Source: Dechloromonas sp. TW-R-39-2 (GTDB lineage: Bacteria > Pseudomonadota > Gammaproteobacteria > Burkholderiales > Rhodocyclaceae). Taken from it: a DNA stretch of 64,000 nucleotides. The notes under the pieces were generated by a model. It did no database searches and was not told the origin of the DNA. It saw nothing but the letters and a program-made list of their open reading frames with translations. This document shows, piece after piece, positions 46,823 through 55,982 of this stretch. The translations under genes were made by a program, and so were the position numbers. The stretch is taken from the NCBI RefSeq assembly GCF_016864195.1, contig NZ_CP045202.1, forward strand, positions 1,395,001 to 1,459,000. Reading direction: 5' to 3'. Numbering within the stretch: the first letter of the stretch is position 1; every line of letters starts with the position of its first letter.

Positions 46823-46848
46823 AAAAAGGGCGCTTCGGCGCCCTTTTT
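46823..46848 (+). terminator. terminator of the rpsP-rimM-trmD-rplS operon
   Basis: AAAAAGGGCGC pairs perfectly with GCGCCCTTTTT around a UUCG tetraloop, followed by ATTTAT. It lies 19 bases past the rplS stop. Confidence 0.95.
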
Positions 46849-46870
46849 ATTTATCTCGATTCTGGCTGGA

Positions 46871-46894
46871 GTTTCCAGTTGACCGTGGGTTTGG
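46871..46894 (-). repeat. copy of a short 3'-intergenic motif (ACGGTCAACTGGAAA)
   Basis: Read on the minus strand, this site 14 bases beyond the stop of the 175-residue secreted protein gene contains ACGGTCAACTGGAAAC, one of at least four similar sequences found just 3' of minus-strand genes in this window (others near 25720, 54328 and 55968). The role is unknown. Confidence 0.4.
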
Positions 46895-46907
46895 TGCCAG
46901 GAGCGGC

Positions 46908-47435
46908 TTACTCCTTATAGCCCACGTTAAACTCCAGCGGCGGAATCTTCTTGTGCGTAGCGCGCATGCCGGTTATCCAATAACAGGATGCACCCTTGCC
47001 GCCCAGATTGTTGCCGATACTCAGGTCGTAGTCTAGGTCGCCGGCAAAGTACCACGGCCCCTTGGCGGCGAACATGCCGCCCTTGGGTTGGATGCTTACG
47101 AAAACTTGGTGGGTCGCCTCGTGGCCGCTCGGGAAGTGGAACTTCGCGAGCGTTCCGACCGACATTCGGCCGCTACCCTTGTTTTCCCAGCGGAAGGTTG
47201 TATCCCGGAACTCGACTTTCGTCGGTTTGGCGCCGCCGTCACCGGCCTCGCCGTAAGGGTCTTTGACGCTGCACACATGCGGTGCGATGTGCTTGAGTAG
47301 TTTTCCGAGGAAGAGCTTTTCTTCGATGGAGGAGGCGGCTTGGGCGGCGAGTGGACTAGCGATGGCGAGAGTAGCAATCAATCGTGCGGTGCCATGCCAG
47401 AAGGAGTGGGAAAGTAGAGGGAGGGGCTTGTGCAT
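46908..47435 (-). CDS. hypothetical secreted protein
   Basis: A 175-residue precursor that I do not recognise. A signal peptide is likely at about 1-34 (ATLAIASPLAAQAA). The mature part has single Cys residues in HVCSVKDPYGEAG and ASCYWITGM that could form one disulfide, and alternating beta-type stretches. It is rich in Gly and aromatic residues late in the sequence (GPWYFAGDLDYDLSIGNNLGGKG). It lies between the ribosomal operon and the two-partner-secretion genes on the strand of the latter, with about 50 bases separating it from the TpsA stop, so it could be cotranscribed downstream of that operon. Confidence 0.65.
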   Translation of the reverse strand: MHKPLPLLSHSFWHGTARLIATLAIASPLAAQAASSIEEKLFLGKLLKHIAPHVCSVKDPYGEAGDGGAKPTKVEFRDTTFRWENKGSGRMSVGTLAKFHFPSGHEATHQVFVSIQPKGGMFAAKGPWYFAGDLDYDLSIGNNLGGKGASCYWITGMRATHKKIPPLEFNVGYKE

Positions 47436-47488
47436 TTTCTTCGTCTCGAATGTGGTTGATTGCTTGGAATACTCATCCTGATATCTGG

Positions 47489-48991
47489 TTAACCCCTGAC
47501 CCCGGGATCCATTTCGCCATTTTCCACGGTGAAGCCTGAGCTTTGCGTGAATGGGCGGATCAGGCGTTCCCAGATGCCGAGCTTCGGTTGCGGAGCGGTG
47601 GTGGCATATTCGATCCGGACGACCGTGTTTTCCGGAAGATTGATCGCGCCGTTTGCAGTGACCACTGTTGTGCTGTTGACCAGATACGGGCTTTCGCCTG
47701 GCGCGATGCTGAGACTCAAGGAAGCGGGAGATTTGATGTCGTCGGCTTTCAGGAAGGAATAGCTGGCCTTCAGCGGTGGCCTGCCGGAATATTCAAAAGC
47801 CAGATAATCCGAGGTCGGTCGCCAGGGATTGGTCATCCCGAACTGGCAGGATGGCCCGCAGCCTGTGTAAAGGCTGTCAGTAATACCGACCTGGGTATAT
47901 TGCTCGACAGGACGTTGGTTGCCGCCAACGGTGGACTCAAGCAGAGGACGATTGCCGACATAGCTGCTGTTGAACTCGGCAGACGACCAACCTGGCGTTG
48001 TGCTTGTGCCGGAGCCTGATGAGCCTGATAAACCCGATGAACCTCCGTTGTAGTTGGGGACGCCCGGAAGCGGTGCGATGCGTATCGTGTCGGTTTCCAG
48101 GATGGCGTTGGTGCCTGTGCTGCGGTAGACGGTGCCGTGAATAAAGTTATTGTCGTTCAGGCCGGCTAGGCTATTGCTTTCGGCGAGTACGACCGCGCCC
48201 GGCGTGAGATTGATGTTCGATTGGGCGTTTTGGCGGTTGTTCCAGATCATGTAGCCGGTTTCGGTGCCGTCGATATCGGTTTCCGTCTTGACGCGGGTAT
48301 CGTTGGGGGCGCTGCCCGGTTCTATTGTGACGCGTGAGCCGGCAGCAAGGATGAGGGTGCCGTTGCTACCCGTGGTCAGGGTGACAGGATTGGTGCTGTT
48401 GCTTCCCCCCAACTGATCGCCGATGGTGATGTAGCCGCCGATCAGCCAGATATTGCCGTTGAGTGCTTCGGTGGCGATGATCTGGGCGCCGGGATGCACG
48501 GTAATCGGCTTGGTCTGGCCGTTTGGACGGACGGCCGGACCGGCGAAGCGGTAGGTGCCGGTACGCCAGTCGCTGTCGGTAATGTCCTGAGTAGATGCGA
48601 TGAAGGATGCTGTGCTGACCAGCGAGCCGTTGTGAAAAATGATACCGGATGGATTGATCAGAAAGACGACCCCGTTCGAGGTCAATGTGCCGCGAATCTG
48701 CGAGGTGGCGTTGGTGCCAGTGACGCGGTTGAGGACGGCGCTGCCGGCACTGGCCTGGGCGAAATGAACAGTTTCACCGGCAGCGATGGAGAACTGCTGC
48801 CAGTTGATGATGGTGCCTGGCGCCGTCGTCAGCGTGCGAGTATTGCCGTTGGTGCTCACCTGCATTGAGCCCTGGCCCATCACGGTCGGCGAGACGAGGC
48901 CGCTGAACGGCGTGCTTTGGGCATGGCCGTATTCGAAGGTGAGCGCCAGGGAGAGCAGCAGCGGCAGTTTGAGATATTTTGCGGTCAACAT
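47489..48991 (-). CDS. short two-partner-secretion exoprotein (TpsA, filamentous haemagglutinin N-terminal domain)
   Basis: A 500-residue precursor starting MLTAKYLKLPLLLSLALTF with a signal peptide to about residue 25. The TPS domain (about 30-290) shows GTIINWQQFSIAAGETVHF, AVLNRVTG...SQIRGTL and VFLINPSGIIFHNGS, the NPNL/NPxG-type signatures recognised by TpsB. A Gly/Ser linker (313-337) leads to a C-terminal region with a close Cys pair, C378 and C382. At 500 residues it is far shorter than haemagglutinins (2000 or more) or HxuA (about 900). It follows its TpsB partner by 10 bases. Probable role: secreted or surface-held binding protein. Confidence 0.9.
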   Translation of the reverse strand: MLTAKYLKLPLLLSLALTFEYGHAQSTPFSGLVSPTVMGQGSMQVSTNGNTRTLTTAPGTIINWQQFSIAAGETVHFAQASAGSAVLNRVTGTNATSQIRGTLTSNGVVFLINPSGIIFHNGSLVSTASFIASTQDITDSDWRTGTYRFAGPAVRPNGQTKPITVHPGAQIIATEALNGNIWLIGGYITIGDQLGGSNSTNPVTLTTGSNGTLILAAGSRVTIEPGSAPNDTRVKTETDIDGTETGYMIWNNRQNAQSNINLTPGAVVLAESNSLAGLNDNNFIHGTVYRSTGTNAILETDTIRIAPLPGVPNYNGGSSGLSGSSGSGTSTTPGWSSAEFNSSYVGNRPLLESTVGGNQRPVEQYTQVGITDSLYTGCGPSCQFGMTNPWRPTSDYLAFEYSGRPPLKASYSFLKADDIKSPASLSLSIAPGESPYLVNSTTVVTANGAINLPENTVVRIEYATTAPQPKLGIWERLIRPFTQSSGFTVENGEMDPGVRG

Positions 48992-49001
48992 GGTTTTTTC
49001 C

Positions 49002-50639
49002 TTAAAACCGGAGTTGCAGGCGGGCGTGAACGTGGTTTTCGCCTGCGCGGGTGGTTTCGCTGCCATCGAGGACGTGGGCGGCATCGAGCTTGAGGCTGAG
49101 ATTCCGGTCGAGCGTCAACCGGTAACCGATACCGATGCTGGCGATGCTTTCTTCGGATTTCTCCAGTGCCTGGGCTTGTAGGCGCTGGCGCCAGCCGGCA
49201 TCGGCAAAGGCTGCCAGCCGGCTGTGACCGAACCACGGAGCGGAGGTGAGTTCGAAGTTGAGGCGGGCTCCATGGTCGCCGGCGCTGTCGAATTCATTAA
49301 AGCCGCGCACGGCCAGGCTACCGCCGAGGCCAAACTGTTCGGCCGGGATCAGCGGGCCGCTTGCTAACTGGCCGCTGAAGGCGATATCTAGCGTGCCGCC
49401 GCCGGAAAAGCGGTTGGCATAGGCGATGGTGGCGCGAAATACAGCCCATTGCGCTTTGGCATCGGCACGCATTGCCGCGTAGCTGGCGTTATCGTTGTCA
49501 GCGCCGAGGCCGGGGATATTGGCGGTTAGGCCGAGCGAGACGAGTGCCGAGGCATTGCCGGCATCCAGCGAGCGAACTACACCGAGAGCGAGTGGCGCGG
49601 CGCCGACCCGATTGTCGTTGACCGGCGTGCCGAGGAAGTCCAGTCCATTTTGGTAATGGCGCCAACTGAGGCCGGCCTGCAGTCGGGTGGCTGGCAATTC
49701 GACTGCAGGCGCTGGTAGCAGATGTTGCCAGTTGAAGCCGAGCAAATGGTGCTTGCCGTGGATGCCGAAGACATTGGCGACGTTGAGGGTGTCACCCTGG
49801 CTGTAGCTGGCTTGAACGCCGAGCAGGCCGCCGGCTGTAGGGAAAGGTAGCGTGAGGTTACCCAAGACGGCTTGCGCGGCATCCGGCTTTTCTGGCGATA
49901 CGACGTAGTTGGCGCTGCCGACGATGCCTCGGTCGAACAGGTCGGCATGCTGGGCGTTGATGCCGAGGCGGGTGTGGCCGGTAATGGCGCTACCTGAGTT
50001 GTCCAGATCAAGGCCAACGGACCACGGCTTTTCATCTTGTACAATGGCCTCGATGCGGGTCTCGCCGTTCGGTTCGCCGACGAACTTGAGGCCGACGCCG
50101 CGTGCCGGGTTTTGGTTGAGTACCTGCTGGGCCTGGAACAGCGCCAGGCGGATGATTTCGCCGCGTGGCTGGTCGGCGGAGAGAGCCTCCTGGACTGGCG
50201 CAGTAGAAAAGTGCTTAGCGCCCGAAACGGTAATTGGGCCAGTACGGGCTTCAATGATAGTCAGTGGGATAGCTTCACCGGGCACAAGTGTTTCCGGCAG
50301 TGCAACTTTGACCAGCGGGTAGCCGCGTTGGTGGTAATGCGCTTCGACCTGGTCGCGCGCCGCGAGCAGGTGGCGGGCATCGCGTTGCAGGCCGGTGAGC
50401 GGTGCTAGTAGGGCCTGGAGTTCATCGTCGCCGATGGCCCGGTTGCCGCTCAGGCGGAAGGCGGGGATGGGGAAACGTTGTTGTGTCGTGGCCGGGTGTT
50501 GCGTGGCCGGTGGTCTGGCCGTTTCACCTTGCTCCGGTGCCGCGGCGGCCGTGCCGAGCGCGACGAGCAGCCAGCAGCCGATGGCTGTCTTTCTTGTCTT
50601 GTGCAAAATGTCTCCCACTTCATTTCGTTTGTTGTGCAT
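49002..50639 (-). CDS. two-partner-secretion outer-membrane transporter (TpsB, ShlB/FhaC family)
   Basis: An Omp85-superfamily protein of up to 545 residues exporting the adjacent TpsA. After a signal peptide come a proline-rich stretch, two POTRA domains (about 65-210: FRLSGNRAIGDDELQALLAPL and GPITVSGAKHFS) and a 16-strand barrel with the lid-lock tetrad in GGSLAVRGFNEF, ending LQLRF as outer-membrane proteins do. The ATG at 50639 has no ribosome site; a TTG 33 bases downstream (50606), preceded by GGGAG, gives MHKTRKTAIGCWLLVAL and is the better start. It lies between the unknown 473-residue gene and tpsA. Confidence 0.92.
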   Translation of the reverse strand: MHNKRNEVGDILHKTRKTAIGCWLLVALGTAAAAPEQGETARPPATQHPATTQQRFPIPAFRLSGNRAIGDDELQALLAPLTGLQRDARHLLAARDQVEAHYHQRGYPLVKVALPETLVPGEAIPLTIIEARTGPITVSGAKHFSTAPVQEALSADQPRGEIIRLALFQAQQVLNQNPARGVGLKFVGEPNGETRIEAIVQDEKPWSVGLDLDNSGSAITGHTRLGINAQHADLFDRGIVGSANYVVSPEKPDAAQAVLGNLTLPFPTAGGLLGVQASYSQGDTLNVANVFGIHGKHHLLGFNWQHLLPAPAVELPATRLQAGLSWRHYQNGLDFLGTPVNDNRVGAAPLALGVVRSLDAGNASALVSLGLTANIPGLGADNDNASYAAMRADAKAQWAVFRATIAYANRFSGGGTLDIAFSGQLASGPLIPAEQFGLGGSLAVRGFNEFDSAGDHGARLNFELTSAPWFGHSRLAAFADAGWRQRLQAQALEKSEESIASIGIGYRLTLDRNLSLKLDAAHVLDGSETTRAGENHVHARLQLRF

Positions 50640-50687
50640 GAAGAATGGGTTATACCGAGCGGGTTGCCGGGCAATGTATCCGTTGTA

Positions 50688-52109
50688 TTAGCCGGGTGGG
50701 AGATTCGGGCCGTAGCCTTCAGCTTCGAGCGTTGCCCGTAGTTCGCCGTGGGTGGTGAGCAGCCCCGATAGCGCGCGTTCGGCGCGTAGGCTTTCTTTCT
50801 GTTCGAGATGACGAGCAGCGAAGCGGCGGTAGTTGATCCAGCCGAGTGCGACCTGGCGGGCATCGCCGATTTGCTCGACGCTACGGATGGCATGTAGGTA
50901 AAAGGCGGCTTCGCCGGGATGATGGTTGTCGAGAATGGCTGTAGGCGGTGTTGCGTCAGCGAGTTCTGTTTCGTAATCCAGCCAGAACTGGCCGAGAAAA
51001 ATCAGTTCCCAGGCGCTTTCCTTGCCGGCGTCGAGCTTGTCGTAATAAGCATGTTCGAGGCTGTGCCAGGCGTAGGTTTCGAGCGGCGTCGCCAGTCCGT
51101 AGGGAATGACGCTTTGCAAATGGAATGCGTAGTTGGCGGCGAAGGCTTGCAGGCGCTCCCAGTTGCGTTGAGACAGCATCCAGTACAGGGCGCTTTGCAG
51201 GTGGCCGAGCGCCGCCCGATGGAGGGCCAAGCCGTGCTCATCAGGGCGGCCGGTCGACGCAGCATTTTCGTGCAGCATCCGGCGGGCGAGCAGGGCGCGC
51301 AGGTTGTGCCATTCGCCGGCATGCAGCGGGTCGACGCCGAGGCGCGGTGCCAGTGGCTCACCCATCGTCCACAGCCGGTGGTAATGCCGGCCGGGGGAGC
51401 GGTCGTAGTCGATGCGGTCGAGCTGGAAACGGGCATAGGGCAGCAGGCCGGGGTCGGCGAGCGGCGAGGGGGGGGACTGGAGCAGGCTCACTAGCAGGCG
51501 ATGGGCCTCGGCGTGGTTGCCAAGCAGGTTTTCGTGGCGGATGGCGCGCAATTGCACCAGGCAGCGGAAATCGGGGGTGATCGGCAGCACCTTGGCCGGG
51601 GTGAGGCTTTCGATGGCTTCGATGTATTTGCCATGTGCGGCGAAGCCGTCGGCGACCATCATGATTTCGAGCAGTTGCCGGCAGGTGACGGGGCAATCGG
51701 TTTCGAGCAGGTGCGGGCTGGGTGGTTCGGTAGCTGCCTGCACTCTGCCGCCGTCGGCTGCCGAGACGACGATGGCGAGTGGCTGTCGGTAGTGCAGTTG
51801 CCACGGCCCGGTGGTCGCCTTGCGCGGTGGGTGTTCGATAGCCAGTGGTTGGCCGGGCAAGGTGTCGAGATAGGCGCGCAGACTGTCGAGCAGGCGCTGC
51901 ATCTGGCTCCGGTTGAGCGGCCGGTTCTGGCCGCGGCGGGCCAATTCGCCCGTCAGCGTCTCGTGGGATAGCGGCTGGCGCGCTGCCGCCGGCGAGGCGA
52001 GCAAGGCGATGAAGGTCGCCTCCCAGCGCCGGCCGAAGTGGTGGGTCGCCGTGCCGAATGTGGCGGCGTTAGCTTGCGGGTCGATGACGAGAGGCATCGG
52101 GCGGTTCAT
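50688..52109 (-). CDS. uncharacterised protein with possible winged-helix and TPR-like region, in TPS/TonB operon
   Basis: A 473-residue protein starting MNRPMPLVIDPQ, with no signal peptide or membrane helix. Residues about 15-110 contain FGRRWEATFIALLASPA, LSHETLTGELARRGQNRPLNRSQMQRLLDSLRAYLD and LQLHY-like strand ends, which resembles the winged helix of SARP/OmpR-type regulators. The remainder is helical with repeating A/L-W-Y positions suggestive of TPR units. I know no named family. Its start overlaps the TonB receptor stop (ATGA) and tpsB follows, so it is an integral operon member and most likely cytoplasmic: a regulator or assembly factor is plausible, both inference. Confidence 0.65.
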   Translation of the reverse strand: MNRPMPLVIDPQANAATFGTATHHFGRRWEATFIALLASPAAARQPLSHETLTGELARRGQNRPLNRSQMQRLLDSLRAYLDTLPGQPLAIEHPPRKATTGPWQLHYRQPLAIVVSAADGGRVQAATEPPSPHLLETDCPVTCRQLLEIMMVADGFAAHGKYIEAIESLTPAKVLPITPDFRCLVQLRAIRHENLLGNHAEAHRLLVSLLQSPPSPLADPGLLPYARFQLDRIDYDRSPGRHYHRLWTMGEPLAPRLGVDPLHAGEWHNLRALLARRMLHENAASTGRPDEHGLALHRAALGHLQSALYWMLSQRNWERLQAFAANYAFHLQSVIPYGLATPLETYAWHSLEHAYYDKLDAGKESAWELIFLGQFWLDYETELADATPPTAILDNHHPGEAAFYLHAIRSVEQIGDARQVALGWINYRRFAARHLEQKESLRAERALSGLLTTHGELRATLEAEGYGPNLPPG

Positions 52110-54235
52110 TGGAAGCGGTGCGTCAGCCGCAAGCTCAGGGTACGCGGTGCGCCGGGGTAGATCACCGCCGGCCGGTTCTCGACGCCGCTGGCGTAGTAGA
52201 TCCGGTCGAACAGGTTTTCTACACTGGCGGTGATTGACCAGTCGGCACGTCTGTAGGTGGCCCCGGCATCGAAGCGGGTGTGGCCAGGCAAGCGCGTCGT
52301 ATTGGCGAAATCGGCGTGGCGCGAACCGACGTGCACGGCACCACCGCCGACCTGCCAGTGTCCGCCATCGGTTGCAGCGAATTGACGGGATAGCCAGGCC
52401 GAGGCCGACCATTCCGGCGCATAGGGCAGTTGGTTGCCGACGGGGTAGCGGTTGTCGCGGGTAACGACGGCGTCCATCCAGGTGCCTTGCGCGGTGATCC
52501 GCCAGCCATGTGGAAGGCGGCCCTGCCAGGCGAGTTCCAGCCCCTGTGAGCGTTGTTCGCCGGTGGTGATGGTGTAGCCGGGGTGGTCCGGGTCGCTGGT
52601 TCGCACGTTCTGCCGGCGGATGTCGAACCGGGCCAGTGTGGCGATCCAGCGGCCACCGGCCGGCTCGTACTTGGCGCCGAATTCGGTCTGCCTTCCGGTG
52701 ACCGGGGCGAAGGGATCGTTATTCCAGGCCCGGGTCTGGGGCAGCGTCGGCAAGGCGCCGGCGGCAAAGTTGCCGTAGACCGACCAGCCGGCAGCTAGGC
52801 GCCAGCTGGCGCCGATGCGCCCCATCAGCGCCGTATCTGACTGCCGAGGGTGCAATTCCAGCTGGTTTGGCTGGGTTTCGGTGTAGTCGTAGGTTTGCTT
52901 CAGGTCGGCGTAGCGTAGGCCGAACAGCCAGGTCCAGGTGCCGATCCGGATCTCGTCCTGCACCGTGAGGCCGAGGCTGCGGAATTGCCAGCATTGGTCG
53001 AAGCGGGTGAAGTCGCTCCCCGGTGTCCATGCCTGGCCGTAAACCGGTGCATAGACGTCGATGGGAGCGTAGTTGCCGAACTCGCCGCCGACGATGCTAC
53101 GCGTTTCATTGGCCGATTCGAGGCGGGCCAGGAAACGGTGGGCCAATGGGCCGGTGGCGAAGTCGCGCGTCCAGTCGAGATAGGCGGTCGTCCAGCGATA
53201 GTGTTCGGGGTAAGTTTCGTACCAGCGGCGGAGTGTCGTGCCGGAGACTGCATTTGATTCGGCGTCGTGGTATTCGCGGTACCGGAAGTTGTACCACGAC
53301 CAGGCGAAATTCAATCGGCCCTCGGCCAACGGCTGGCTCCAGCGCACCGCGAAGCGGGTCGATTGTGAATGCTGGCGGCCCCAGCTTTCGCCATAGACCC
53401 GGTCGATGGGAACTTGTGCCGGCCGGCCGTTGATCGCCGGAATGCCGTAGTCAGTCGTCCGCCGGTCGTTTAGCCATTCGAGTGCGACCGAGAAATTTCT
53501 CCCACCGCCGAGATCGACCGACCACGACGGTGCGACCAGCGTTTGTTCGAGCGTCTGGCGATCCCGGAAACTGCCGCCTTCCTCGCGCGAGACGACCAGG
53601 CGGTAGCGCGACGCCGCGCCAGTCGGGCCGCCGAAATCGCCGGAGAGGCCGGTACGGCCCCAGGAGTTGGTCCACACGGTCGCTTCCGCCAGCGGCGTGG
53701 CGACCGGCTGCTTGGTGCGGACATATACCGCGCCTCCCGGGTCGGCCCAGCCGTACAGCGCGCCGACTGGGCCGCGCAGTATCTCGATACCTTCGATGTT
53801 GGCCATTGCCATCGGCCCGAGCGACTGGTAGCGGAAACCATCACGGTAATAGGCGGTGGATGAGCCGGTGTTGAAGCCGCGCAACTGGAAGGTCGGGGAA
53901 TTCAGGCCCCAGTAATTGGAGCGGCGGGAGATGCCGGGCGAATAATCGGTCAGATCGGCGATGTCGGCGGGCAGCCGTTCGGCAAATGCCTCGGTAGTCA
54001 GGTGCGTGGCCGACAAGGGCAATTCCAGCAGGGGTGTCGGTGTTAGCGTCGCAACTGCGCTTTCAGTTTCGCGCAGGCGTTCCTCTGTAACGATGACGGT
54101 GGGCAGGGTTTCGGCGATGCCTGCGGGACAATCGGCAACCAGCACCGCCAGGCAGGTCTTGGCCGTCCAGCTGGCACGCCGCAACCAGCCGAGATAAGTA
54201 TGTCGGTTATTCTGGAGGCGGCATTTCCTTTCCAT
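52106..54235 (-). CDS. TonB-dependent outer-membrane receptor, siderophore type
   Basis: A 709-residue receptor with a long N-terminal signal region (about 1-41), a TonB-box-like TVIVT at about 46-50, a plug domain (about 60-170: RGFNTGSSTAYYRDGFRYQ, IEILRGPVGALYG, GGAVYVRTKQP) and a 22-strand barrel ending LRLTHRF. The plug resembles ferrichrome/hydroxamate receptors more than haem receptors: I see no FRAP/NPNL haem-receptor motifs. GGGAGC precedes the start. It is the first gene of an operon with the unknown 473-residue gene and the tpsBA pair, implying that the secreted TpsA captures the ligand this receptor imports. Confidence 0.92.
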   Translation of the reverse strand: MERKCRLQNNRHTYLGWLRRASWTAKTCLAVLVADCPAGIAETLPTVIVTEERLRETESAVATLTPTPLLELPLSATHLTTEAFAERLPADIADLTDYSPGISRRSNYWGLNSPTFQLRGFNTGSSTAYYRDGFRYQSLGPMAMANIEGIEILRGPVGALYGWADPGGAVYVRTKQPVATPLAEATVWTNSWGRTGLSGDFGGPTGAASRYRLVVSREEGGSFRDRQTLEQTLVAPSWSVDLGGGRNFSVALEWLNDRRTTDYGIPAINGRPAQVPIDRVYGESWGRQHSQSTRFAVRWSQPLAEGRLNFAWSWYNFRYREYHDAESNAVSGTTLRRWYETYPEHYRWTTAYLDWTRDFATGPLAHRFLARLESANETRSIVGGEFGNYAPIDVYAPVYGQAWTPGSDFTRFDQCWQFRSLGLTVQDEIRIGTWTWLFGLRYADLKQTYDYTETQPNQLELHPRQSDTALMGRIGASWRLAAGWSVYGNFAAGALPTLPQTRAWNNDPFAPVTGRQTEFGAKYEPAGGRWIATLARFDIRRQNVRTSDPDHPGYTITTGEQRSQGLELAWQGRLPHGWRITAQGTWMDAVVTRDNRYPVGNQLPYAPEWSASAWLSRQFAATDGGHWQVGGGAVHVGSRHADFANTTRLPGHTRFDAGATYRRADWSITASVENLFDRIYYASGVENRPAVIYPGAPRTLSLRLTHRFQ

Positions 54236-54252
54236 GTTGCTCCCTTTTGATT

Positions 54253-54266
54253 TTTGTTATGACAAA
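54253..54266. promoter_or_regulatory. short inverted repeat upstream of the TonB receptor gene
   Basis: TTTGTTATGACAAA has TTTGT/ACAAA arms around four bases, 18 bases before the receptor start codon. It does not match a Fur box well. A possible operator of the TPS/TonB operon, on symmetry alone. Confidence 0.25.
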
Positions 54267-54316
54267 CAGCATATGATGCCATGCCCTCGGACTTGTGCCT
54301 TTCCGTTTTTCACTGA

Positions 54317-54341
54317 TTTTCCCAGTCGACCGTGAACCCGG
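54317..54341 (-). repeat. copy of the short 3'-intergenic motif (ACGGTCGACTGGGAAA)
   Basis: On the minus strand this site about 32 bases past the stop of the lipoprotein gene reads ACGGTCGACTGGGAAAA, closely matching the copies near 46880, 25720 and 55968. Confidence 0.45.
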
Positions 54342-54372
54342 CGTGTGAGTCGGTGCCGGATTCGTCCAGGGC

Positions 54373-55815
54373 TCAGTCGACTTTTCCGGAAACCCCCTTT
54401 AGCGTCAGTTGTTGCGCCGGGTTATCCGGATTGAAGAAAGTGACTTGTTCGACGATCTGGAATTTGATGGCAGTGTCTGGTGGTCCCATAGTTTTGACGC
54501 CGAGGTGCTGTCCTTTGGCCGCCATGGCGATCTCTCGGATCGCCCGCGCCTGTTCCGGCGTGATCGGCGAAAAGGCGATCCGGTGCTGGGTCGTCTCCCG
54601 GCAGCCGTTTTGGCAGTAGCTGGGGTATTTGAACGAGTCTTCAACAGCAAAATCCCTGGCTTCAGGCTGCAGCCCTGTCTTTTCCCGAACCTGTTGCGCC
54701 CAAAGGTGGGTGGGCGGTGCAACGACGACCGGGACGACGCCCTGGTTGCCCAGGACATCTCGGCTGACGCCCAAGCTGAGTTTGTTGTAGCCGTAGGTAT
54801 TCATGCTGCTGGTTGCAAAGCCCGAATACTTGTCGCTCCAGACGGTAACGAAGCTGCATTCCAGCGTCGGTGGGGTACCGGCAGCCTGCTTGGCTCCGCG
54901 CAGCCAGGCACGCACCTTGGCGACGCCGCTCTTCATTTCGGCAAGCCGCAGGTCGCTCTGCATCTGGTCGCGCTGCGCTTCCTTGGACAGGCGAATTTCA
55001 AGCGCCTGGGCGAGCGAGTCGTAGGCCTGGCCGTTCTTCACCTTGTAATTGACGATGCGCAGGTAGTCGTTGGAATACGCTTCAAGGGCTTCGGTATTGC
55101 AGGTGGCCTTGTTGGCGACGCTGCGTTGCTCGATGCGTTGCGCCGTGGCGCTGCCGGTGGGCAGGTAGGGCTTCAGTTGCGCCAGCAGGGGGGCATCGGC
55201 ATTGTCCGCTAGCCAGGCCAGCGATTGCTTCGCCCGCCCGCTGCTTTCGGCGCTGGCGTTGGCCAGCGTGCGGAGCAGTACGTCACCGACAGCGCCTGGT
55301 TTCATCGCGCTGCTTGTATTCAGGGTGCGGAGTATCTTCTGGTTGGTTCCGCCCTGGTCGGGGCTGCCGTCGATCAAATATTCCTCGCGCCAGGCGGTGT
55401 GGTCGCGATTGGTTTCCCGGCCGCTGGCAAAAGTATAGGGGCTGATCATCGTGGGGAAGCCGTCCTGCGTCATCTGAACGATGAAGCCGTCGCCGTTGGC
55501 CTGACCGCCGGGGCAGTTGTGCGTGAAGCGGAAGCGCGGGCTGCGTTCCAGGTCGCCATAGCTGTATTTCAATTGCCCGGAGCAGCCGCCGGCATCGGTG
55601 AAATTGAGTTTTTTGGCGTTCGATGAACGCGAACGTTCCGGTGCTGCTTTCCGGGCGGCTTGTTTTGCTTCCGGCGCGGGGGCGGTTGCTTGGGGCGCCC
55701 CAGCCTCACCTTCCTGGCCGGTCCGCTGCGTCGGCGGGACGGTCTTGCAGGCCGCCAAGCTTAGAGCGGCGAGCAGGACGGCATGGAAGCGATAGTTGCG
55801 GATAGTCTTCTTCAA
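54373..55815 (-). CDS. hypothetical lipoprotein
   Basis: About 480 residues from a TTG start at 55815, chosen because GGGGGA lies just upstream and because it places a lipoprotein signal at the N-terminus (KKTIRNYRFHAVLLAALSLAAC, lipobox LAAC). The frame is open 40 residues further upstream but that part is not signal-like. After a Pro/Ala/Glu-rich spacer the mature protein has several Cys residues (GGCSGQL, HNCPGG, ATCNTE, LECSF, YCQNGC), likely disulfide-bonded, and no family I recognise. It lies between the TonB/TPS operon and folE2, and sits 137 bases upstream of the receptor gene on the same strand. Confidence 0.65.
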   Translation of the reverse strand: MKKTIRNYRFHAVLLAALSLAACKTVPPTQRTGQEGEAGAPQATAPAPEAKQAARKAAPERSRSSNAKKLNFTDAGGCSGQLKYSYGDLERSPRFRFTHNCPGGQANGDGFIVQMTQDGFPTMISPYTFASGRETNRDHTAWREEYLIDGSPDQGGTNQKILRTLNTSSAMKPGAVGDVLLRTLANASAESSGRAKQSLAWLADNADAPLLAQLKPYLPTGSATAQRIEQRSVANKATCNTEALEAYSNDYLRIVNYKVKNGQAYDSLAQALEIRLSKEAQRDQMQSDLRLAEMKSGVAKVRAWLRGAKQAAGTPPTLECSFVTVWSDKYSGFATSSMNTYGYNKLSLGVSRDVLGNQGVVPVVVAPPTHLWAQQVREKTGLQPEARDFAVEDSFKYPSYCQNGCRETTQHRIAFSPITPEQARAIREIAMAAKGQHLGVKTMGPPDTAIKFQIVEQVTFFNPDNPAQQLTLKGVSGKVD

Positions 55816-55912
55816 AGCATCCCCCTGATCTTTGCCGATGATGAAACCGGCAATTGGACACCAGTGGGATGAGTCGAATGTATCGCTTGTATCTGTTGCG
55901 CAGGAATGAAAA

Positions 55913-55934
55913 TGGGACGCTCTGGAGCGTCCCA
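55913..55934 (-). terminator. terminator of the xseB-ispA-dxs-folE2 operon
   Basis: TGGGACGCTC pairs perfectly with GAGCGTCCCA with a minimal loop. On the minus strand it is followed by TTTTCATTCC. It lies about 50 bases past the folE2 stop. Confidence 0.8.
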
Positions 55935-55957
55935 TCTTGGATTTTTATTTTGGCCGT

Positions 55958-55982
55958 GTTTCCAGTCGACCGCGGTAACCGG
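55958..55982 (-). repeat. copy of the short 3'-intergenic motif (GCGGTCGACTGGAAA)
   Basis: On the minus strand, starting two bases past the folE2 stop, the site reads GTTACCGCGGTCGACTGGAA followed by AC. A near copy near 25720 shares GTTAC-GCGGTCGAC and TGGAAAC with a four-base insertion between them. Confidence 0.5.

What the first reader, a model, noticed from the sequence alone, without database searches (positions are those of the whole stretch)
47489..54235. Hxu-like operon: TonB receptor, unknown protein, TpsB, short TpsA
Four minus-strand genes are tightly packed: receptor and unknown protein overlap (ATGA), tpsB follows closely and tpsA comes 10 bases later. In Haemophilus the hxuC-hxuB-hxuA set has the same order (receptor, TpsB, TpsA) and uses a secreted TpsA to capture haemopexin-bound haem for the receptor. 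Here the receptor looks siderophore-like, TpsA is only 500 residues and an intracellular-type gene is inserted. This suggests a variant secreted-capture plus TonB-import system for an iron complex or other nutrient. The order is seen; the shared function is inference.
Basis: partly seen in the sequence, partly recalled or inferred. Interest (0 to 1): 0.75.

Follow-up and report, generated by a model that had tools for sequence, protein, structure and literature searches.

The report
Surface-protein operon with its own regulator
A bacterium has acquired a small gene cluster that makes an outer-membrane nutrient receptor, a secreted surface protein with its exporter, and an apparently undescribed type of DNA-binding protein that probably switches the set on; the resemblance to the Haemophilus haem-capture system is mainly in gene order.

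Summary
The four genes are real and packed as described. All six lie in one block, window ~46842-55964, inserted between rplS and folE2; that site is empty in 6 of the 8 same-genus genomes read and holds an insertion element in the other 2.

The receptor scores as siderophore-type, not haem-type. TpsA matches HxuA only in the secretion domain; no full-length relative was found. 'Hxu-like' therefore holds for gene order, not for homology or shown function.

Best reading: an acquired surface module (receptor, TPS protein) with a one-component wHTH-TPR regulator. DNA binding and targets are inferred. Secreted capture for the receptor remains possible but has little support.

The parts
46842..55964 (.). 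Inserted block between rplS and folE2 carrying six same-strand genes
   Evidence: Nearest relative read, G030, aligns at 96% up to 46841 and again from 55965 at 95%, with an IS4-type transposase gene between; in 6 of 8 same-genus genomes read only 44-104 bp separate the two matches
54373..55935 (-). Probable lipoprotein of unknown family, upstream of the receptor; may or may not share its transcript
   Evidence: ORF of 520 aa; 499 aa of it scanned, no Pfam or NCBIfam match at E up to 0.01; lipobox LSLAAC by eye; no tblastn match in the 8 rplS regions
52106..54235 (-). TonB-dependent receptor, siderophore-receptor subfamily, no N-terminal signalling domain found
   Evidence: PF07715, PF00593, TIGR01783 over cut-off; best solved relatives CntO/FoxA
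50688..52109 (-). P0001: OmpR/ToxR-type winged helix (residues 1-115) plus TPR domain; putative transcription regulator
49002..50639 (-). TpsB outer-membrane transporter (start ATG 50639, or TTG 50606)
   Evidence: PF03865, PF08479 over cut-off; homologues 81-84% identical in metagenomes
47489..48991 (-). Short TpsA (500 aa): signal peptide (by eye), TPS secretion domain, short remainder, Gly/Ser linker, C-terminal part with the only two cysteines (C378, C382)
   Evidence: PF05860 residues 42-273; cysteines
46908..47435 (-).
   Evidence: Starts 53 bp after tpsA; no family; 1 of 76 same-genus genomes (its own) has it
46823..46848 (+). Terminator-like hairpin after rplS, at the edge of the inserted block
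   Evidence: 9 such sites found in the region against 8.3 in shuffles, so weak by itself

Best explanation
The cluster is a horizontally acquired surface module under its own one-component regulator. The receptor imports a small ligand, probably an iron chelate. TpsB secretes the short TpsA to the cell surface. P0001 is a cytoplasmic transcription factor: its OmpR/ToxR-type winged helix binds DNA near the operon, and its TPR domain senses a ligand or partner (possibly linked to what the receptor imports), so receptor and TPS protein are made together. Shown: the genes, their families, the folds (predicted), the insertion, and repeated adjacency of the P0001 family to receptors. Inferred: DNA binding, the target promoter, the signal, what TpsA binds, and export of the fifth protein.
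For: The N-domain model matches OmpR/PhoB-class DNA-binding domains: ranks 1-26 of the VIA list are of that class (class as I know these proteins), including CadC, ToxR and BaeR; Foldseek's first three hits are ToxR bound to DNA. TPR domain. Neighbourhoods: among 168 called flanking genes of 11 P0001-family loci including the window, an HMM found 5 receptors and all 5 occupy a slot next to the P0001-like gene; the product of 2/n per locus is about 2e-5, or 1.5e-4 if Leptothrix and Sphaerotilus count once (my arithmetic, post hoc). Conchiformibius steedae plasmid: a family member lies divergent from tpsA-tpsB across 77 bp, a usual regulator/target layout. The Massilia W12 member lies divergent from a large Big-domain protein. 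Insertion.
Confidence: 0.6

Rival explanations
1. Hxu-like capture: TpsA stays at the surface (its C378/C382 disulfide plugging TpsB, as proposed for HxuA), strips a ligand from a carrier and hands it to the receptor; P0001 only regulates.
For: Same gene order as hxuCBA. TpsA has exactly two cysteines, at 378 and 382 of 500; HxuA has C855 and C861 of 884, thought to anchor it in TpsB (PMC4873976 passages).
Against: Receptor not haem-type. TpsA resembles HxuA only in residues 37-138 and is little over half its length. Its cysteines lie 118 residues or more from the end, against 23-29 in HxuA. In the 4 other receptor-linked family loci no TPS gene was found by phmmer.
Confidence: 0.15
2. Fortuitous island: a receptor-regulator pair and an unrelated TPS pair (adhesin or biofilm protein) were assembled side by side in one insertion and share little function.
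For: Receptor-regulator recurs without TPS; the same-genus tpsB-tpsA loci read show no receptor; rplS-folE2 is an insertion site; GC falls from 65% (receptor, P0001) through 63% (tpsB) to 59% (tpsA, P0005), hinting at two sources.
Against: Tight same-strand packing, including a 10-bp tpsB-tpsA gap. A second family member is beside a TPS pair in another bacterial family.
Confidence: 0.2
3. The P0001 family is a phage-defence component, or travels in defence islands, and the receptor is its paired phage receptor or guard.
For: One member overlaps (ATGA) the gene of an antiphage HyoA protein, 1269.8 bits against cut-off 1200. Another (L033) lies two genes from a type III restriction-modification pair (PADLOC 226.5 and 405.5 bits).
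Against: P0001 itself and two relatives have no convincing PADLOC match. HyoA relatives occur on 62 plasmid records, whereas the HyoA-side family member matches only 1 plasmid record, Conchiformibius, not among the 12 HyoA records listed; in the one HyoA-relative neighbourhood read the adjacent annotated genes are too short (a 566-aa protein two genes on was not examined). Only 9 neighbour proteins were screened for defence, so more could exist.
Confidence: 0.05

Closest known systems
HxuCBA haemopexin-haem system of Haemophilus influenzae
   Same: TonB receptor, TpsB, TpsA in one operon and in that order; a lone cysteine pair in the C-terminal part of TpsA
   Different: Receptor of siderophore type; TpsA little over half the length and similar only in the secretion domain; a wHTH-TPR gene inserted; a fifth, probably exported, protein
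PUMA3 (VreAIR) control of the PA0690/PA0692 TPS pair (PdtA/PdtB) in Pseudomonas aeruginosa (PMC2729926 passages)
   Same: A receptor-related protein, a dedicated regulator and a TPS pair linked in one region
   Different: There an ECF sigma factor and anti-sigma factor with a receptor-like signalling protein; here a full receptor without a signalling domain and a wHTH-TPR protein, no sigma or anti-sigma gene found
SARP/AfsR regulators (PMC10936776, search listing) and HilA (recalled)
   Different: No Pfam match to their domains; linked here to surface-protein genes
Type Vb two-partner secretion
   Same: TPS domain and POTRA/ShlB-type TpsB over cut-off
   Different: Short TpsA with no full-length relative found

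Membership tests
Hxu haem-haemopexin system | TonB receptor, TpsB and TpsA genes in one operon | tested here: met
   Gene order and spacing, (co-transcription itself not testable)
Hxu haem-haemopexin system | Receptor of the haem/haemoglobin family | tested here: not met
   TIGR01785 37.6 bits, cut-off 316.85; TIGR01786 40.1, cut-off 323.75; TIGR01783 308, cut-off 223.5
Hxu haem-haemopexin system | TpsA functional domain homologous to HxuA residues 351-884 | tested here: not met
   phmmer match limited to query 37-138, by sequence only; no TpsA structure predicted
Hxu haem-haemopexin system | C-terminal cysteine pair anchoring TpsA in TpsB | tested here: inconclusive
   C378 and C382 are the only cysteines, but 118 residues or more from the end
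Hxu haem-haemopexin system | Iron/Fur control | tested here: inconclusive
   No Fur box above shuffles in the gaps tested; consensus recalled
Type Vb two-partner secretion | TpsA TPS domain and TpsB POTRA/barrel | tested here: met
   PF05860, PF08479, PF03865 over cut-off
OmpR/ToxR-type wHTH regulators | OmpR-type winged-helix fold | tested here: met
OmpR/ToxR-type wHTH regulators | Binds DNA and controls a promoter | not testable with these tools
   Needs ChIP/EMSA
SARP family | BTAD domain by curated profile | tested here: not met
   Not among the matches of P0001 at E up to 1 nor among the families matched by the 21 members of A1 at 0.1
FecIR/VreIR cell-surface signalling | Receptor N-terminal signalling domain, ECF sigma and anti-sigma genes | tested here: not met
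   Pfam shows only Plug and barrel in the receptor; no sigma or anti-sigma match in the other five proteins of the block
HyoA-type defence | NACHT protein partner, defence annotation | tested here: not met
   No NACHT protein in the block; seen beside 1 of 11 other family loci; no PADLOC match for P0001

The most novel reading that the evidence does not exclude
The P0001 family is an undescribed class of one-component wHTH-TPR regulators that travels with the surface genes it controls. Paired with a TonB receptor lacking a signalling domain, it would form a cell-surface sensing circuit without sigma/anti-sigma factors: the receptor imports a ligand, the TPR domain reads it in the cytoplasm, and the wHTH switches on receptor and TpsBA.
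Probability: 0.3. Interest if true: 0.7.

Novelty: new variant of a known kind. Interest (0 to 1): 0.5.

Why it matters
If right, it names a new regulator family that marks, and may reveal, the ligands of orphan TonB receptors and short TPS proteins, and it offers an alternative to FecIR-type signalling for coupling import to surface-protein secretion. It also corrects a gene-order analogy (Hxu) that would mislead annotation.

Tried and rejected
Hxu membership rejected on receptor type and TpsA homology. FecIR-type signalling rejected: no signalling domain, sigma or anti-sigma match. The defence reading is unlikely but not excluded; I raised its odds from 0.04 to 0.05 after one search found a type III restriction pair near the L033 member. 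Fur box and direct-repeat operators: nothing above mononucleotide shuffles. Sigma-70 promoter scan: one site on the other strand, 1 against 1.9 in shuffles. A scan of genome contigs with P0001 alone found none; the alignment found 6 loci. P0001 has no match in plasmids or phages; the distant Conchiformibius member was found through the HyoA-side member and has no other plasmid match. The genus of G1124 (43 genomes) gave only the two members already known. C-terminal part of TpsA against its 64 listed homologues: no credible match. Trying to spot Neisseriaceae genomes by uptake sequences gave nothing clear. Foldseek and VIA on the full P0001 model listed TPR-type and other helical-repeat matches only in the rows shown, so the N-domain was folded alone.

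Dropped or missed: my gene caller missed the P0001-like genes of L035 and L108 (found by blastp) and called few genes in L034, L090 and L093; L033 ends 358 bp after its family gene; G880 has the contig length of L034 and was counted once. Partial, weak profile matches (9 of 10 hits, 4 of 8, 2 of 4) were not counted as family members; the 5 of these read with their surroundings were L092-L096, plus L109 and L110. Of the 70 other genomes with an rplS match 8 were read; of 39 other genomes with TpsB matches 9 loci were read.

Full report
Observation. The window lies at G000:C1:1395001-1459000. The four minus-strand genes are present as described: receptor 52106-54235, P0001 50688-52109, tpsB 49002-50639, tpsA 47489-48991. 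Receptor and P0001 overlap by ATGA; tpsB stop and tpsA start are 10 bases apart. A fifth gene, 46908-47435, follows tpsA by 53 bases. A gene at 54373-55935 precedes the receptor.

Insertion. Blastn of the window against eight same-genus rplS regions (8 of the 70 other genomes with an rplS match) shows the flanks aligned and the middle missing. In G030 the match stops at 46841 and resumes at 55965 at 95-96% identity; about 1.46 kb with an IS4-type transposase gene lies between. In G034 about 2 kb with an rve-type transposase gene lies there. In the other six, 44-104 bp separate the matches. The six genes are thus one variable block. GC is 65% for receptor and P0001, 63% for tpsB, 59% for tpsA and P0005, against 58% for the whole window.

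Receptor. Plug and barrel domains, TIGR01783 above cut-off, haem families far below. The best solved relatives are CntO/FoxA. Of 76 same-genus genomes (own included) 75 have some match; the best near-full-length ones are 33% identical, so the substrate cannot be named.

TPS pair. TpsB and TpsA pass Pfam cut-offs. The ShlB profile finds one match in this genome, this TpsB. The best same-genus TpsBs are 35% identical over most of the length (one short piece reaches 38%); close homologues (81-84%) were seen only on metagenome contigs of 2.2-6.7 kb. TpsA matches 64 other proteins, none over more than 48% of its length, and 42 of 100 genomes (own included) have some match, mostly within the secretion domain; a few rows reach residue 336. 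It could still have longer relatives, because the protein search admits only lengths of 0.55-1.75 times the query. In the nine same-genus tpsB loci read, no receptor was recognised by phmmer; three of the genes beside tpsA there are FecR-domain proteins, a kind not matched by the proteins of this block.

Neighbourhoods. I read 11 other family loci. L034 (Glaciimonas), L036 (Leptothrix) and L038 (Sphaerotilus) have a TonB receptor directly upstream on the same strand; L037 has one divergently adjacent. These receptors score below the TIGR01783 cut-off (214, 112, 130 and 88 against 223.5), so they are not close relatives of P0004. Each of the four loci has a ~190-226-aa outer-membrane-type gene downstream (two match OMP_b-brl; one matches CarO below cut-off; the fourth resembles that one). 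L106 (contig length of Massilia sp. W12) has a divergent Big/PAP2 protein and an RHS protein. L119 (Conchiformibius steedae plasmid) has divergent tpsA-tpsB; its protein is 26% identical to P0001 and scores 162 bits against the family profile. L107 overlaps an antiphage HyoA gene by ATGA. L035 lies beside a response regulator and a kinase. L033 lies two genes from a type III restriction pair. L097 and L108 show no such partner by eye. Within the 11 loci scanned (window included, L119 not), 5 receptors occur among 168 called flanking genes and all 5 are adjacent to the family gene. The profile was built from those receptors, so this tests position, not detection. On the tree the receptor-linked label is not clustered (3 changes; shuffled mean 3.3; 271 of 500 shuffles as low), so repeated association or repeated loss both fit.

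Mechanism. The simplest account is a local regulator carried with surface genes. It fits the fold, the receptor adjacency and the Conchiformibius layout. What is not shown: DNA binding, the operator, the signal, and any link between TpsA and the receptor's ligand. No operator or Fur box stood above shuffles.

Comparison. Hxu shares order and a lone C-terminal cysteine pair (PMC4873976, passages; PMC5422565, passages) but fails on receptor type and TpsA homology. PUMA3 (PMC2729926, passages) shows that a receptor-type signalling system controlling a TPS pair is known, with other parts. None of the titles and abstract starts listed by six literature searches (with no hit, 109) describes this protein family or this gene set; the library lacks most subscription journals, and the family has no name to search by.

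Verdict. The new element is the wHTH-TPR family that accompanies receptors and, once elsewhere, a TPS pair.

Noticed in passing
window 46842-55964; L111 6371-7833; L113 6228-8286: The rplS-folE2 gap is an insertion site in this genus: a six-gene block here, an IS4-type element in G030 and an rve-type (IS3-like by eye) element in G034, empty in the six others read.
   Followed up: partly
L107 8918-14715: A P0001-family gene overlaps (ATGA) the gene of an antiphage NACHT protein HyoA (NF058534, 1269.8 bits, cut-off 1200).
   Followed up: partly
L033 52-5750: A type III restriction-modification pair (PADLOC) lies two genes from the P0001-family gene.
   Followed up: no
L106 1-17509: In a genome with the contig length of Massilia sp. 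W12 a P0001-family gene lies between a large (at least 2750 aa) Big/PAP2 protein, with an LEPRVLL-like N-terminus by eye, and an RHS/TIG protein.
   Followed up: no
L034 11855-12535; L037 12374-13033: A CarO-like (below cut-off) ~220-aa outer-membrane protein follows the P0001-family gene in two loci.
   Followed up: no
L092-L096, L109, L110: Partial profile matches (about residues 161-371) in ORFs of roughly 400-570 aa, at least two (L096, L110) near penicillin-binding transpeptidase-domain proteins that look like class-D beta-lactamases: perhaps a sister wHTH-TPR family.
   Followed up: partly
L084, L085, L087, L088, L090: Same-genus tpsB-tpsA pairs are often followed by a 235-290 aa exported gene; the three scanned (L084, L085, L087) carry a FecR domain over cut-off; no such protein in this block.
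   Followed up: partly
window 50606: tpsB may start at TTG 50606 with an SD-like GGGAGA (by eye), not at ATG 50639; this leaves an 81-bp gap after P0001.
   Followed up: partly
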